Below, in pieces: positions 14,601 to 23,572 of a stretch of 40,034 bases of DNA; within the stretch, counting starts at the first letter, position 1; each line of letters opens with the position of its first letter. The notes below the pieces were generated by a model. It did not search any database. It was not told the DNA's origin and worked only from the letters and a program-made list of their open reading frames with translations. The position numbers were made by a program, and so were the translations under genes. The stretch is from assembly GCA_019775845.1 (NCBI GenBank), contig JADQAV010000076.1:1-40034 (forward strand), written 5' to 3'. Source of the DNA: Myrmaecium sp. VS I D KN 1 (taxonomy: Eukaryota > Ascomycota > Dothideomycetes > Valsariales > Valsariaceae).

Positions 14601-15337
14601 CGAGAGAAACTGGGAAGGCCGCGGACTGTTCGATGGATGCCCCTCACCCTTAAGCTCTCTAGTATACCAACTTGCGTCTGTCTGGTCTCGATAACCCTCA
14701 CCCTTAAGCTCTCTAGTATACCAACTTGCGTCTGTCTGGTCTCGATAACCCCGGGTTTGCTTGTTTACCTGGGTGACAACTTGCCCATTGTCAAAGCCTA
14801 AGACTCTTTGACCTGCGCCCTCATCCAACACTCGATAAGAATCCCATGGCAACAGCCTACCAGTTTTCACACAATCCACAATCCATGCTGGCTTCACAAT
14901 CCTGTAACGCCTGAACTCGACTGCTTTCTTCGGGGTCAGGCTGCTGGCGATGATGTGGGTAACCGTGGTCTTCCCGTCCAGGTATTGCAAAAACCCGCCG
15001 CCGTGGGTGACGATAAGCTTGTGGAGGTCGTTGAGTGAAGGCTGGGTGTAACCGTTGACATGCACGACCACTCCGCGGAAGATTTGAGGCTTTCCCGGTG
15101 ACTGCGCGCGCAACTCAGCGTCGAGATTCTGCAACTTGATTTTCTTGCGGCGAAAGTAGTCGCCAAAGCCACCGAACTTGGAGCCTTTGTACTCCTCCCC
15201 TTCCTCGTCCTCAAAGGTGTCTGGAACGCGTGTTAGACAAGTTGAGGCCGCTGTAGTAGGGCACACGCGTCGCGCCACTCACGGTTCTCGATCCGTTTCC
15301 GGACCGAGTTGGAGTTCTCTTCCAGCCGTGACCCCAT
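11649..15337 (-). CDS. rev1: DNA repair protein Rev1 (Y-family deoxycytidyl transferase)
   Basis: There are two exons, 15337-15283 and 15220-11649, with a 62-nt intron (GTGAGT...TTCCAG); they encode 1208 residues. Rev1 inserts dCMP opposite abasic sites and damaged bases and is the scaffold for polymerase zeta in translesion synthesis, in the nucleus. Features in order: the conserved N-terminus (MGSRLEENSNSVRKRIENH); a BRCT domain at about 60-150; an exact 18-residue tandem repeat at 176-211; a basic linker (KRSRSVGEETPSKRRK); the N-digit region before the palm (about 355-380); the palm with catalytic Asp in HVDFDSFF (about 409-416) and SVDEALID (Asp506, Glu507); little finger to about 780. 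Three ubiquitin-binding UBM-like segments follow (about 862-880, 911-930, 1043-1060), with an AT-hook-like RRRGRPPK between the last two. The C-terminal helical domain (about 1112-1208) binds other polymerases. The gene is divergent from the FKBP gene, 422 bp away. Confidence 0.95.
14643..14750 (-). repeat. Exact 54-bp tandem duplication inside rev1
   Basis: Two identical, directly adjacent 54-bp copies (14750-14697 and 14696-14643) encode the 18-residue unit GYRDQTDASWYTRELKGE twice. It lies between the BRCT domain and the polymerase core, in a part expected to be disordered. The lack of any difference between the copies suggests a recent event or ongoing homogenisation. Confidence 0.95.
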
Positions 15338-18151: not shown

Positions 18152-18233
18152 GGAAATTGATAATCGTACAACCCCTACATTACTGCGCGTACAACCCCCA
18201 GATTACTAGACGTACAACCCCCCTTCCGATTGG
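18152..18233 (+). repeat. Left terminal inverted repeat
   Basis: This 82-bp arm contains three GTACAACCCC words about 22 and 24 bp apart, two of them preceded by ATTACT and four bases. It ends CTTCCGATTGG. Regular subterminal words of this kind are often transposase binding sites. Confidence 0.9.
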
Positions 18234-18291
18234 TCAGAAACACGCGGTATAGGCTGGCAGTATACTGATTTTGCTCAACGCCCGGCATTAC

Positions 18292-18503
18292 GCCTGCGAG
18301 GGCCCTACGTAAGGCCTGCGAGGCGCCCTACGTAAGGCCTGCGAGGCGCCCTTCGTAAGGCCTGCGAGGCGCCTATACGGTTCTACCGGAGCTTGCGAGG
18401 GGCCCTGCGTGAGGGCCTACGTGAGGGCCTACGTGAGGGCCTGCGAGGGGGCCTGTGAGAGGGCCTGCGAGGGAGCCTGTGGGAGAGCCTGCGAGGGAGC
18501 CTC
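18292..18503 (+). repeat. Two minisatellite blocks inside the TIR element
   Basis: Block one (about 18292-18379) is four units of 22-23 bp built on GCCTGCGAGGCGCCCTACGT plus AAG. Block two (about 18407-18503) is roughly eight diverged 12-bp units of the type GTGAGGGCCTAC or GAGGGAGCCTGC. The two share the GCCTGCGAGG core. No protein is encoded. Confidence 0.85.
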
Positions 18504-18614
18504 TATGTCTGCCTGATGGCCTGCTTGAGGGCCTGATAGTCTACCTGAGGGCGAGAGAAGGCTGCGAGGAAGCCCGCGGAAGGGCCTACGTATAGGCTTC
18601 TAGCCAATCGGAAG

Positions 18615-18695
18615 CCAATCGGAAGGGGGTTGTACGTCTAGTAATCGAGGGGTTGTACGCGCAGTAATGTAGGGGTTGTACGATTATCAATTTCC
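18615..18695 (-). repeat. Right terminal inverted repeat
   Basis: This is the 81-bp partner of the left arm. It differs mainly by CT for CA after the second GTACAACCCC word and by one C in the third. The inner border is extended by a duplicated CCAATCGGAAG (18604-18625). Confidence 0.9.
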
Positions 18696-19472: not shown

Positions 19473-20477
19473 CTAAGTTTCCATACTCAGTATTAGCCAT
19501 TCGGTGCTGACAATCTCATCATCCCTTGTCCAGTCGTTTAGCGTCATTGGCTCGAAACCAACCCAGCCTAGATCCCGCATGAGACTGTTCAACTCATCTG
19601 GCGGGGAATGGCGGTCGATGCAGACAGCTAACTTGGAGCAATCGAATGCAGGATGGGAACAGAGCTCAAGAAGAGCCATCAAGCTGTCACCGCAGTCAGT
19701 CGATGTGTAGCCAACACTTCGAGGCGATGGTACTTACCCAGGCTTGAGATCGCATCCTAGAACGCCTTGGTCAAAGAAGACGAACAATGTGTTGTCACTA
19801 CCGTCAGGCGTTTGCGCAACGAAGCCTCTGAACCTCGCGCCGCCCACATAATCATACATTTCAATCCACTTGCTCACCAGTCCCCGCGGAGACTTGATCA
19901 TGATGTCCTCGGGTGTCGAACGTTCGGACGTCGGCGGAGATGGCAACCCATGACTGATAGTTGTCGTAGCGGTATTGATGCCAGGAATGTTGTTACTGTA
20001 TTGCACACCCATCGCAAGCGAGTCCTGGTAGGCCAAGTTCCCCTCACCAAGGAAAACAGCCTTCAGTGTCTCGCAGAAGAGTCTCTCACACTCTCCCGCA
20101 ATGGTGTATGCCGCCCCCCCTCGGCGCGCCGAACGCGGCTGGCTCCTGGCCTTGTCGCTGCGCGTAGCAGTATAGGCGGCGAGGGGGGGACTTAGCGGTG
20201 GAGAAGGTATTCCCTGGAGGCTTCGTCAGTACCATTGTCGCGTACAGGCATCGCTCTGAAGGATAGGAGTCTACAATAACCTACCGAGCTGACCTCAGGA
20301 ACGCCAATCGACCCCGCCGGCCCCGGTCGAAGAGTAATGAAATCCCTGGAGAGCCGTCGAGCAAGCATCGACGGCGTAGCAGCTCGCGAGGACGTTGGGA
20401 CGGGCCTGGTGGCTCATGGTATTCTCGTAGTAATTACTACTACTACTGGAATTCATACTACTGGTGATTCGCGCCAT
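19473..20477 (-). CDS. OAZ1: Ornithine decarboxylase antizyme, expressed by +1 programmed frameshifting
   Basis: There are three exons: 20477-20285, 20213-19738 and 19683-19473. Antizyme binds ornithine decarboxylase, sends it to the proteasome without ubiquitin, and blocks polyamine uptake. Frame 0 from the ATG at 20477 encodes 60 residues (MARITSSMNSSSSSNYYENT...GGVDWRS) and stops at TGA 20297-20295. Skipping the T of this TGA continues EVSS, and after a 71-nt phase-0 intron GIPSPPLSPPLAA follows. The full product is about 292 residues. The C-terminal half carries the antizyme fold: AAYTIAGECERLFCETLKAV, FVFFDQGVLGCDLKPG, LAVCIDRHSPPDEL, RDLGWVGFEPMTLNDW and STEWLILSMET. Antizyme frameshifting is stimulated by polyamines, giving feedback control. 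No in-frame ATG was seen upstream of 20477, though an extra 5' exon cannot be excluded. Confidence 0.9.
20295..20300 (-). promoter_or_regulatory. +1 ribosomal frameshift site TCC-TGA
   Basis: The antizyme frame 0 ends CGT TCC TGA GGT. The conserved antizyme coding sequence resumes exactly one base later (GAG GTC AGC TCG), so UCC-UGA is the slip site, the same codon pair as in animal antizymes. The following base is G rather than the U usual in mammals. The donor of intron 1 lies only 10 nt after the stop. Confidence 0.9.
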
Positions 20478-21297
20478 GTCTAACAGTTGCCAGGGTTGCA
20501 GTTCGGTGAATGTTTTGAAGAGAAGGTTGAGGGGCGTAGTAGCTGATGAGCAGGGAGCCGGTTCGAGGTTGCTGTCGTCGGATTGATGAGCAAGAACTTG
20601 GATGGTGATTCTGTAAGAGTCGGAAAGTTCGGCGGAATATGTAGGGAAGTGGAGAAGGGGCGCCTTAGTCAGTGGGCCACCCGCCAAGCCCTGCTTACTA
20701 GTAGATCTGGTCACCTGAGGCAAACGGCGCGTACCGACCACGGGGAGGACTAGCGATTAGTAGCCGTGGAAGGCCAGCGAACCACAGCCAAGCAGTTCAC
20801 GAAGACCAAGCTTCTCTCCCCACAAGGGATGTAGGTCATCAACTACCCAGCTACGGAACACAAGGTCGATCAGAAACGCTTTCACAGCCGCTCGAGTAAC
20901 GGTATACGAAGACGTAGCAAAGGCATTGGACGAGTAATGGCTTGATTGATGATAGCTCCCCTCCGATAGGCAGGGAATTGAAAGATTCTACATACCCAGA
21001 TTCACACGTACGTGTACCTATACACTGAAACCAATCCCAGACAGCCCCCCATTGAGATTACATGATTCCCAAACGCCGTGACCTCTTGATGCTCCGTATG
21101 GTTGGTAGCCGTTCCAACACCTCGCTATGCAGCGCCTCGTCTCTCGGTGTCCTGGTTGATACTGTACATATATCCCAAGACCATGTAACGGGCCTCCCTA
21201 TTTCCTCGAGAAGAAGAAAATGAACCTTGCACTATTCAATATTAGATGTCGATAGGAGATAAGCAGCTCATGGACGAGAAATAACGATTGTCGCGCG
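20478..21297. other. Antizyme promoter/5' UTR and 3' flank of mpe1
   Basis: Frame 0 of antizyme stays open upstream of 20477 to about 20741 without an ATG, so a longer leader is untranslated or carries an unseen exon. The remainder up to the mpe1 stop has no supported gene. Confidence 0.4.
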
Positions 21298-23572
21298 TCA
21301 AAGCTCGGTATAATCGCTCGGCCTAGCTCTCTTTTGCCTATTCTGGTGACGATGAGGGTTCACCGGCTGGCGGAAATATGCGTTGTCCTCCTCGTTCGGG
21401 GAAGATTCGCTGAAGACGGTCCTCTGCTGATTCGGAAATGGGCCAGTCTTCATGTTCGGCATGCCCTGCCCTTGATAGTTCATGCCGTTCATGCCGTTCA
21501 TCCCATTCATGCCACCCATGCCGTTCATCCCATTCATGCCACCCATGCCTGCCATGCCATTCATGCCATTCATGCCGGCCATGCCACTCATGCCAGACAT
21601 GCCGTTCATGCCGTTCATACCAGTCATACCCCAATTCTGATTTCCTGGCCAGTTTTGCATGCCCCCATAGCCTCCGTTGGGCATCATGCTCGGCTGGTTG
21701 TACATGCCGCCGTGCTGAGGGTACATGGACTGCTGATATCCCATGCCGCCCATGGCGTTCCAGTTACCCTGACCATTTTGCATCATGGGATTCATCATGC
21801 CTTGATGCATGCCCATCATCGGCGGTGCATTCATTGACATACCCATCATTCCATTTTGACCCGGCATGCCCATTCCATTCATACTGGGACCAGTCACCCC
21901 TGGGAAAGAGGCCATGTTATTCGCGCCAAAGGATGGGTTCATCGGCATGTTAGGGGGCATCATTGCGTCCATCTGAGCAATGAAATCCGGCTTTGACGTT
22001 GTCGGTTGTTGCAATTGATGTTGTTGCTGTTGCTGCTTTCGCATAGCTGCAGGAGCGGTTGGTATCCGATCGTTCTTCAATTCATCTTCAGCTAGCCGTT
22101 TCTTTGAGGTACCATTGGTCTCCGGTCTCGTAGAGCCGTTCGTTGGCGAACTTGGTCCTGACCGAGATGGGACAGGCGACTGGGCCTTTTTGTCGGCTGT
22201 TGCAACATCCTCCTTTTTGTCATTATTCTCATGGTCCATTGGTTTCGTGGCTTCCGTGGCTTCCGTGACGGGGGTCGCTTTCTCGGAAGTAGGGCTTTTG
22301 GAGCTTTCCTTGGCCTTCTTCTCCTTGTCGTTGGCCTTCTCTTCTTCGTAAGCTTTGATCTTGGCCATCGTCTCCTCATCAGACACAAGATCATCTATCA
22401 GCACGCTGGTCGAACAATTCGGACAAACTAGATCACTGTTGATGAGGGCATCGACAATACAGTCGTTGCAGTACGTCTTGCCACAACAAGGTGTTTTCAT
22501 TGGCTCCACGAATAAGCGCTTATCAATAGGACACTCCAGTCCCCGTTCTTGGAGCTCCTTGTTACCAGACGCAGATGCGTCCTGTTTCTCCGCAGCTGCT
22601 TTGGCCTTTTCTTGGAATTGCTCCCACGACTCCGTGTCCGGCTTAACAATCACATACTCGCCTTCAGCATTGACCATAACACCTGATGGCTGGCGCCCGT
22701 CTTCATTTAGCCCGTCACTGGCAAGTGCTGTGGCCTTATCGACCGTCTTTAACATAGACCTTGGAATGCCAGTAGTGCGTTTGATACGAGGCCGGCTTTC
22801 GAAATTAGGGTCGTCGTTGGTCGGACATGCTTGTATCCAATGGCCTATGAAGAATTAGCTTAGGATCACATTGACAATTTCTATGTAGAACGTACCTTTC
22901 TCATGACACCGATAACAGATGTAGCCCGGTGGGGGCTCATGGTCAGGAACATTGGCTTTACTCCTAAACCCTGGTCTGTAACTGGGCTTCGCACTAAAAC
23001 TTCTATAAGTATATACCGAGTACCGCGTCGGAGGAGAACTCACTTTGCCATCTGCTGCTGCTGTTGTTCCCACTGATCACCACCTGCTCTAAACATCGCC
23101 TGAATCCTCTCTTCTTCAGTTTGGGCCTTGTCCATATCGGCAGCTCCGTTCGATACGATGGCGCTGAAGGAGGTCGTTTTAGTGCTAGTAACCTCTACTC
23201 GATGAGTGTTCTTCGCATTGACCGGTGCCTTTCCAGAAACGTAACGAGCGGCCTTGCCGTGGCCTGGCTTGGCCGCAGGGAGCCGGCGAGCTACGACAGA
23301 TGTAGACCGGGGTATGATTTCCGTGTCATCATCGTATTCTAACGCAAGGTCAGCCATTTTTCAAGCCTAACAGAAAAACAAAAAAGAAATTCGAACAAAC
23401 CTTCATTGGTGTCTTCGTTGTAAATGGCTAAATCAAAGTCCGTGCCATCTCCAAGCCCACTAATTGCGATAATGTCTTTCTTGAGTTCAAAGACAGAAAT
23501 GCCAGTGCCGTCGAAGGTAATACGCTGCGGCTCTTTCGAGGATTTGAACTTGAAAAAGACAGAAGAAGCCAT
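21298..23572 (-). CDS. mpe1: Mpe1/RBBP6-type subunit of the cleavage and polyadenylation factor
   Basis: There are four exons: 23572-23401, 23338-23044, 22981-22896 and 22844-21298 (699 residues). Introns are 51-62 nt. Domains in order: an N-terminal DWNN ubiquitin-like domain (SSVFFKFKSSKEPQRITFDG, residues 3-80); a linker with the conserved IIPRSTSVVARRLPAAKPG; a CCHC zinc knuckle (Cys178, Cys181, His186, Cys191); and a RING/U-box type motif starting CPIDKRLFVEPMKTPCCGKTYC (289) and ending CPNC (328). Yeast Mpe1 is an essential part of CPF, which cleaves and polyadenylates pre-mRNA; human RBBP6 is its relative. The last 370 residues are low complexity: Lys/Glu/Ser-rich, then Gln-rich, then a long Met/Gly/Asn-rich part with NGM, GGM and SGM tripeptides. 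The neighbour upstream is hrp1, another 3'-end processing factor. Confidence 0.93.
21481..21628 (-). repeat. Met-Asn-Gly / Met-Gly-Gly coding repeat in mpe1
   Basis: About 16 imperfect 9-bp units (cat + gcc or ccc + gtt or att on the + strand) encode runs of NGM with SGM, AGM and GGM variants near the C-terminus. The codons vary between units, which argues for selection on the peptide as well as slippage. Confidence 0.8.

What the first reader, a model, noticed from the sequence alone, without database searches (positions are those of the whole stretch)
20295..20300. Antizyme gene with a +1 programmed frameshift at TCC-TGA
The antizyme sequence is split between two frames exactly at TCC-TGA. 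The downstream frame reads without interruption into the conserved domain only if one base is skipped. Any pipeline that does not allow recoding will annotate a 60-residue protein or lose the gene. The next base is G, not U as in mammals, and an intron begins 10 nt after the stop, so any 3' stimulator in the mRNA must come from exon 2.
Basis: partly seen in the sequence, partly recalled or inferred. Interest (0 to 1): 0.8.

Follow-up and report, generated by a model that had tools for sequence, protein, structure and literature searches.

The report
Fungal antizyme gene with programmed frameshift
This looks like a fungal gene for antizyme, the protein that shuts down polyamine production, and as in yeast and mammals the ribosome must skip one base at a stop codon to make it; it is a clean but ordinary example of a well-known mechanism.

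Summary
On the minus strand a 60-codon ORF1 (20477-20295) ends TGG CGT TCC TGA G; the ornithine decarboxylase antizyme domain lies in the +1 frame across two predicted introns (20284-20214 and 19737-19684). Joined with one base skipped, the frames give 292 aa that match Pfam ODC_AZ at E 7e-40 over positions 1-113 of 114. UCC_UGA, UGG two codons upstream and Gly-Gly at -7/-6 agree with published antizyme rules. Summed codon usage favours frame 0 before the TGA and +1 after it, though 5 of 28 sliding windows disagree. Among the frame-joining introns enumerated, none pairs a good donor with a good acceptor and keeps the domain. Limits: the frames overlap by 119 nt, so the shift codon is assigned by homology; no 3' pseudoknot was found; no relatives could be fetched; RNA and ribosome data are absent. 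Antizymes of Emericella and Botryotinia are cited to a 2000 paper, and an antizyme-finding program reported one from Hypocrea virens in 2008, so this is a new member of a known kind. The least ordinary point is an intron starting 10 nt after the shift stop.

The parts
20285..20477 (-). Exon 1: ORF1 (ATG 20477 to TGA 20297-20295, 60 aa) plus 10 nt that belong to ORF2
   Evidence: summed codon usage favours this frame over ORF1 (7.0 against -22.5 and -12.1)
20295..20300 (-). Shift site TCC TGA (followed by G): P-site UCC, +1 shift into GAG
   Evidence: matches the UCC_UGA majority site reported in PMC5009743 (passages)
20301..20306 (-). TGG CGT, candidate 5' stimulator (module A) directly 5' of the shift codon
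   Evidence: the UGG rule is in PMC5009743, CGU at -2 in Agaricomycete antizyme is in PMC4505036
20310..20324 (-). Codons -9 to -5, G A G G V; Gly at -7 beside Gly at -6
   Evidence: compare S. pombe P A G G A in Table 2 of PMC5009743
20214..20284 (-). Predicted intron 1 (71 nt, GTAGGT ... TACTGAC ... CAG), starts 10 nt after the TGA
   Evidence: needed for ORF2 (unspliced, the +1 frame stops after 34 codons)
19738..20213 (-). Exon 2: ORF2, including the start of the ODC_AZ domain
   Evidence: PF02100, E 2.5e-12 on the frame 20225-19734
19684..19737 (-). Predicted intron 2 (54 nt, GTAAGT ... CTGAC ... CAG)
19473..19683 (-). Exon 3: rest of the ODC_AZ domain, stop TAG ending at 19473
   Evidence: (PF02100, E 8e-22 on the frame 19733-19473)
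20112..20190 (-). GC-rich distant stem in exon 2 (C7UCG/CGAG7, offsets 33-112 after the TGA in the spliced mRNA); weak candidate only
   Evidence: z -2.05, 6 of 300 shuffles as low; of six stretches tried, the one at 112-160 was lower still (z -2.65, 4 of 300); no comparative support. Coordinates computed from the offsets

Best explanation
The gene encodes ornithine decarboxylase antizyme of a fungus, probably a filamentous ascomycete (taxon inferred, not tested). Ribosomes translate ORF1 and reach UCC_UGA with UCC in the P site. Most terminate and release a 60-aa peptide without the domain. A fraction, which rises with polyamine level, slips forward one base and goes on in ORF2 (Ser-Glu at the junction), giving the 292-aa antizyme that binds ornithine decarboxylase and sends it to the proteasome. 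This is an autoregulatory negative loop. Shown here: the frame relation, the gene model by sequence signals, the domain, and the match of the shift site and its 5' context to published antizymes. Inferred from the family: the shift itself, its response to polyamines, the binding of ornithine decarboxylase; inferred from signals: splicing of both introns.
For: Pfam ODC_AZ 135.9 bits, E 7e-40, profile 1-113 of 114, on the joined protein; the exon 2 and exon 3 frames hit it separately. Summed codon usage: ORF1 frame +7.0 against -22.5 and -12.1 before the TGA, ORF2 frame +40.8 against -86.6 and -47.6 after it. UCC_UGA, UGG at -3 and Gly at -7 as in PMC5009743 (passages); CGT at -2 as in Agaricomycete antizyme (PMC4505036 section 29). 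No credible frame-joining splice among those enumerated. The three frame-0 AUGs of ORF1 have a purine at -3; the one ORF2-frame AUG between ATG 20477 and the TGA is fourth in order and has T at -3.
Against: No RNA-seq, ribosome profiling or peptide data. No homologue could be fetched, so conservation of the site is judged against published rules only (searches found none; those are viral, bacterial and archaeal collections). No 3' stimulator near the site and no Rfam match at gathering in the window. The 119-nt frame overlap leaves the shift codon open by sequence alone. In the sliding codon-usage scan 5 of 28 windows favour a frame other than the predicted one: those starting at -93 and -63 (frame +2) and at +57, +237 and +267 (frame 0). 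Sequence search of solved structures found no antizyme.
Confidence: 0.93

Rival explanations
1. Alternative splicing removes the TGA and joins ORF1 to ORF2 in one frame, with no ribosomal shift.
For: 69 GT/GC-AG introns of 39-300 nt would restore the frame from ATG 20477; 20312-20214 uses the same acceptor and branch sequence as intron 1 and would give 283 aa.
Against: Best donor score -0.36 (a GC donor), and -1.19 for the 20312 donor, against 7.66 for the predicted intron 1 donor. Nine longer introns (318-693 nt) with donor score of at least 4 start from ATG 20477; one of nine ends in YAG and it deletes part of the domain. The donor matrix was typed from general knowledge, not trained on this genome; longer introns with weak donors were not enumerated.
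Confidence: 0.03
2. The antizyme domain is made by leaky scanning to the AUG at 20368 in the ORF2 frame, giving a 256-aa protein without a shift.
For: The ORF2 frame is open from that AUG through the predicted splices.
Against: It is the fourth AUG after three frame-0 AUGs with a purine at -3, and has T at -3. It would leave the UGG..UCC_UGA context unexplained. Codon usage over ORF1 disfavours that frame (-22.5 against +7.0).
Confidence: 0.02
3. The frame break is a sequencing error or a recent pseudogenising indel.
For: The two frames differ by one base.
Against: It falls on the canonical antizyme shift site with UGG at -3 (about 8e-5 by chance), ORF2 is intact to its stop with strong summed codon usage, and both introns keep good signals.
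Confidence: 0.02

Closest known systems
Schizosaccharomyces pombe antizyme (SPA) and the filamentous ascomycete antizymes of Emericella nidulans and Botryotinia fuckeliana (Ivanov et al. 2000, not held; seen as cited in passages of PMC3432380)
   Same: Antizyme of a fungus; for S. pombe, Ala-Gly-Gly at -8 to -6 as here (Table 2 of PMC5009743)
   Different: Their sequences could not be read here, so shift site, intron position and the base after UGA were not compared
Agaricomycete antizymes (Coprinopsis cinerea, PMC4505036; Ganoderma lucidum GlAZ, PMC9604110)
   Same: CGU at codon -2 and Gly-Gly near -7/-6; short ORF1 (66 aa in Ganoderma, 60 here)
   Different: Shift codon UUU there, UCC here; the conserved nascent-peptide signal was not compared, and no structure at the 19-nt position was found
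Mammalian OAZ1
   Same: UCC_UGA shift site; same protein family; polyamine feedback expected
   Different: UGA is followed by G here, U there; no 3' pseudoknot found here
Saccharomyces cerevisiae OAZ1
   Same: Antizyme made by +1 shift at a UGA
   Different: Shift site GCG_UGA_C there (PMC5009743, passages)

Membership tests
Ornithine decarboxylase antizyme (PF02100) expressed by +1 frameshifting | ODC_AZ domain above the curated cut-off | tested here: met
   135.9 bits against a cut-off of 24.2, E 7e-40; the pieces alone 47.1 and 77.7 bits
Ornithine decarboxylase antizyme (PF02100) expressed by +1 frameshifting | Two partly overlapping ORFs, the second in +1 | tested here: met
   119-nt overlap
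Ornithine decarboxylase antizyme (PF02100) expressed by +1 frameshifting | ORF1 stop codon beginning with U at the shift site; UCC_UGA in the majority | tested here: met
   rule from PMC5009743 and PMC2375905 (the T of the stop is the only universal nucleotide)
Ornithine decarboxylase antizyme (PF02100) expressed by +1 frameshifting | UGG as second codon 5' of the shift codon; Gly or Pro at -7 beside a Gly or Pro (frequent, not universal) | tested here: met
   rules from PMC5009743
Ornithine decarboxylase antizyme (PF02100) expressed by +1 frameshifting | Frameshifting that occurs and rises with polyamines | not testable with these tools
   needs reporter, peptide or ribosome data
Ornithine decarboxylase antizyme (PF02100) expressed by +1 frameshifting | Binds ornithine decarboxylase and drives its degradation | not testable with these tools
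   needs biochemistry; contact residues of the human complex (PMC4595762, passages) were not aligned
Mammalian OAZ1-type frameshift cassette | U after the UGA | tested here: not met
   G at 20294
Mammalian OAZ1-type frameshift cassette | Pseudoknot starting about 3 nt 3' of the shift site | tested here: not met
   97 of 100 shuffles as good or better for the best H-type pseudoknot in +1 to +110 (crude stacking score); z +0.5 for +1 to +50
Agaricomycete-type antizyme cassette | UUU shift codon | tested here: not met
   the codon is TCC
Agaricomycete-type antizyme cassette | Conserved nascent peptide at codons -15 to -5 | not tested
   the peptide sequence was not in the passages read
Agaricomycete-type antizyme cassette | RNA structure starting 19 nt 3' of the shift site | tested here: inconclusive
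   no significant fold in +1 to +50 or +1 to +120; nearest stem candidate begins about 34 nt after the TGA (z -2.05); no alignment to test conservation

The most novel reading that the evidence does not exclude
Antizyme expression in this fungus is tied to splicing. The intron starts 10 nt after the shift stop, so nearly all of what lies 3' of the shift site in the ribosome's path exists only in spliced mRNA: a retained intron gives a dead-end +1 product after 34 codons, and failure to shift leaves an exon junction 486 nt downstream of the stop that could mark the mRNA for nonsense-mediated decay. Polyamines would then raise both the yield of antizyme per mRNA and the life of the mRNA, with the shift driven by 5' signals alone.
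Probability: 0.1. Interest if true: 0.55.

Novelty: new member of a known kind. Interest (0 to 1): 0.27.

Why it matters
Antizyme is the textbook case of a frameshift used as a metabolite sensor. A well-defined fungal example with UGA followed by G, an intron 10 nt downstream and no recognisable 3' pseudoknot is a good test of whether 5' signals alone can drive the shift. It is also a reminder that standard annotation is likely to miscall this gene.

Tried and rejected
Relatives: viral contigs with exon 2 and exon 3, genome contigs with exon 3 and exon 2: no relative; these are viral, bacterial and archaeal collections, so nothing follows. Solved structures by sequence: the full protein (six weak hits, best E 0.14) and the domain (one hit, E 0.19) gave nothing convincing, so contact residues were not compared with the human complex. 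Rfam: 0 matches at gathering on the whole window; 3 hits far below gathering in 20000-20600. tRNA scan: none.

3' stimulator: sliding windows along the spliced mRNA (62 windows, 60 shuffles each): 4 of 62 had z below -2, namely -170 (60 nt, -2.93), +110 (60 nt, -3.36), +150 (60 nt, -2.45) and +100 (100 nt, -3.16). Six chosen stretches with 300 shuffles each: 0-50 z +0.5, 0-120 z -0.47, 27-116 z -1.66, 33-112 z -2.05, 0-160 z -1.57, 112-160 z -2.65. The low ones lie 33 nt or more from the site; with this many tries and no alignment none is claimed as functional.

A counting argument from TCCTGA frequency was rejected (fewer than expected). Splice signals: 15 intron-like donors in the window against a mean of 5.9 and a maximum of 11 in 20 shuffles, so the intron signals are better than chance over the window but do not prove any one intron. 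In one search my script failed to find intron 2 and so printed a wrong tail of the protein; one search corrected it, and only the upstream results are used. The codon-usage training set is eight open frames of the window, read partly stop to stop, so it may hold some non-coding codons.

Literature: searched (listings and abstract starts only, except for papers opened). In the listings and passages I saw, nothing describes an intron beside the antizyme shift site; the survey most likely to (Ivanov and Atkins 2007) and three related papers are not held, so absence from print is not claimed. Also opened, passages only, without bearing on the verdict: PMC3777964, PMC12661321.

Full report
What is there. 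The finding lies on the minus strand. From ATG 20477 a 60-codon frame runs MARITSS...STGAGGVDWRS and stops at TGA 20297-20295; the last sense codon is TCC. Ten nucleotides later, at 20284, a predicted 71-nt intron begins GTAGGT and ends CAG at 20214, with CTGAC starting 16 nt before its end. A second predicted intron of 54 nt (GTAAGT ... CTGAC ... CAG) runs from 19737 to 19684. Exons are 193, 476 and 211 nt. With the introns removed and one base skipped after TCC, the frame is open for 292 residues and ends at TAG 19473.

What it encodes. The exon 2 and exon 3 frames alone match Pfam ODC_AZ with E 2.5e-12 and 8e-22. The joined protein matches with E 7e-40, 135.9 bits, over profile positions 1-113 of 114. 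ORF1 alone matches no family above cut-off. The protein is ornithine decarboxylase antizyme. Sequence search of solved structures gave no antizyme; this was not followed further.

Is the frame change real and is it translational? Codon usage trained on 4335 codons of eight other open frames of the window favours frame 0 over ORF1 (7.0 against -22.5 and -12.1 log2) and the +1 frame after the TGA (40.8 against -86.6 and -47.6); over the first 115 codons after the shift, ahead of the Pfam domain, the ORF2 frame still leads (12.1 against -41.9 and -4.7). The fine resolution is poor: 5 of 28 sliding windows favour a frame other than the predicted one (starts -93, -63, +57, +237, +267), and the best switch points (-12, -9 and -48 nt; 50.3, 50.2, 50.0) are nearly tied, with 47.8 at the TCC itself. 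The ORF2 frame is open for 119 nt upstream of the end of the TGA, so the sequence alone does not name the shift codon; homology does.

Splicing rival. Of introns that would join ATG 20477 to ORF2 with no shift, 69 of 39-300 nt exist, but their best donor scores -0.36, against 7.66 and 9.98 for introns 1 and 2 (matrix typed from general knowledge). Allowing up to about 700 nt and donors of at least 4 gives 45 joins with an AUG upstream of the donor: 9 start at ATG 20477, make 85-210 aa, and one of the 9 has a YAG acceptor; 25 start at the ORF2-frame AUG 20368; 6 start at 20235 inside intron 1; 5 start at 20012 in exon 2. The AUG at 20368 comes after three frame-0 AUGs and has T at -3, while those three have a purine, so leaky scanning to it is disfavoured but not excluded.

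Comparison with published antizymes. [quoted passage not shown] and a Gly or Pro at -7 beside another Gly or Pro is frequent (PMC5009743, passages and section 17). All three hold here: codons -9 to -1 read G A G G V D W R S, and Table 2 of that review gives P A G G A for S. pombe. Agaricomycete antizyme has CGU at -2 (PMC4505036, section 29), as here. The next base is G. [quoted passage not shown] So G at this place is a variation and not a departure from the family.

3' stimulator. In spliced mRNA only the first 10 nt after the stop are from exon 1. The first 50 nt fold no better than shuffles (z +0.5), the first 120 nt likewise (z -0.47, 89 of 300 shuffles as low), and the best H-type pseudoknot by a crude stacking score is equalled or beaten by 97 of 100 shuffles. 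A GC-rich stem at +33 to +112 (z -2.05, 6 of 300), a hairpin at +112 to +160 (z -2.65, 4 of 300) and 4 of 62 sliding windows with z below -2 were seen; all but one of these lie 33 nt or more 3' of the site and the other is in the first part of ORF1. Published pseudoknot stimulators start 3 nt from the shift site (PMC5009743) and the mushroom structure 19 nt from it (PMC4505036). With no related sequences, no claim is made for them. The 5' context is the best candidate stimulator, by analogy.

Mechanism. Shown: gene structure by sequence signals, domain, frame relation, shift-site context. Inferred from the family: UCC in the P site, slow termination at UGA, slip by one base, polyamine-dependent yield, binding of ornithine decarboxylase and its degradation.

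Novelty. Antizymes of Emericella nidulans and Botryotinia fuckeliana are cited to a 2000 paper (PMC3432380, passages; the paper itself is not held). The OAF program found a Hypocrea virens antizyme in EST data, cluster F2 (PMC2375905, section 11; that Hypocrea virens is a Trichoderma is recalled). This is a new member of a known kind. The position of intron 1, 10 nt after the shift stop, is the least ordinary feature; whether it is conserved could not be tested, and the survey most likely to say so is not held. By geometry, an unshifted ribosome leaves exon junction 2 at 486 nt after the stop, which suggests a testable link to mRNA decay; this is inference only.

Taxon. No genome is held for the window. 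Gene content and short introns with CTGAC sequences suggest a filamentous ascomycete; this was not tested.

Noticed in passing
14641-14751: A perfect 54-bp tandem duplication (2.1 copies) inside the REV1-like ORF keeps the frame and repeats an 18-residue stretch (GYRDQTDASWYTRELKGE); recent duplication or assembly artefact.
   Followed up: no
18165-18682: Island of short tandem repeats (units of 12, 20, 23, 24 and 48 bp) between the 3' end of the antizyme gene and the gene with a nucleoplasmin-like domain; by eye, a 23-bp unit with GTACAACCCC occurs near both edges in opposite orientation.
   Followed up: no
20478-20836: No ATG in about 360 nt upstream of the antizyme ATG, and frame 0 is open upstream to 20756, so a non-AUG extension of ORF1 is possible; the transcript start is unknown.
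   Followed up: partly
21479-21627: Repeated MNGM/GGM stretch near the C-terminus of the RING/zinc-knuckle gene (MPE1-like, name recalled) next upstream on the same strand.
   Followed up: no
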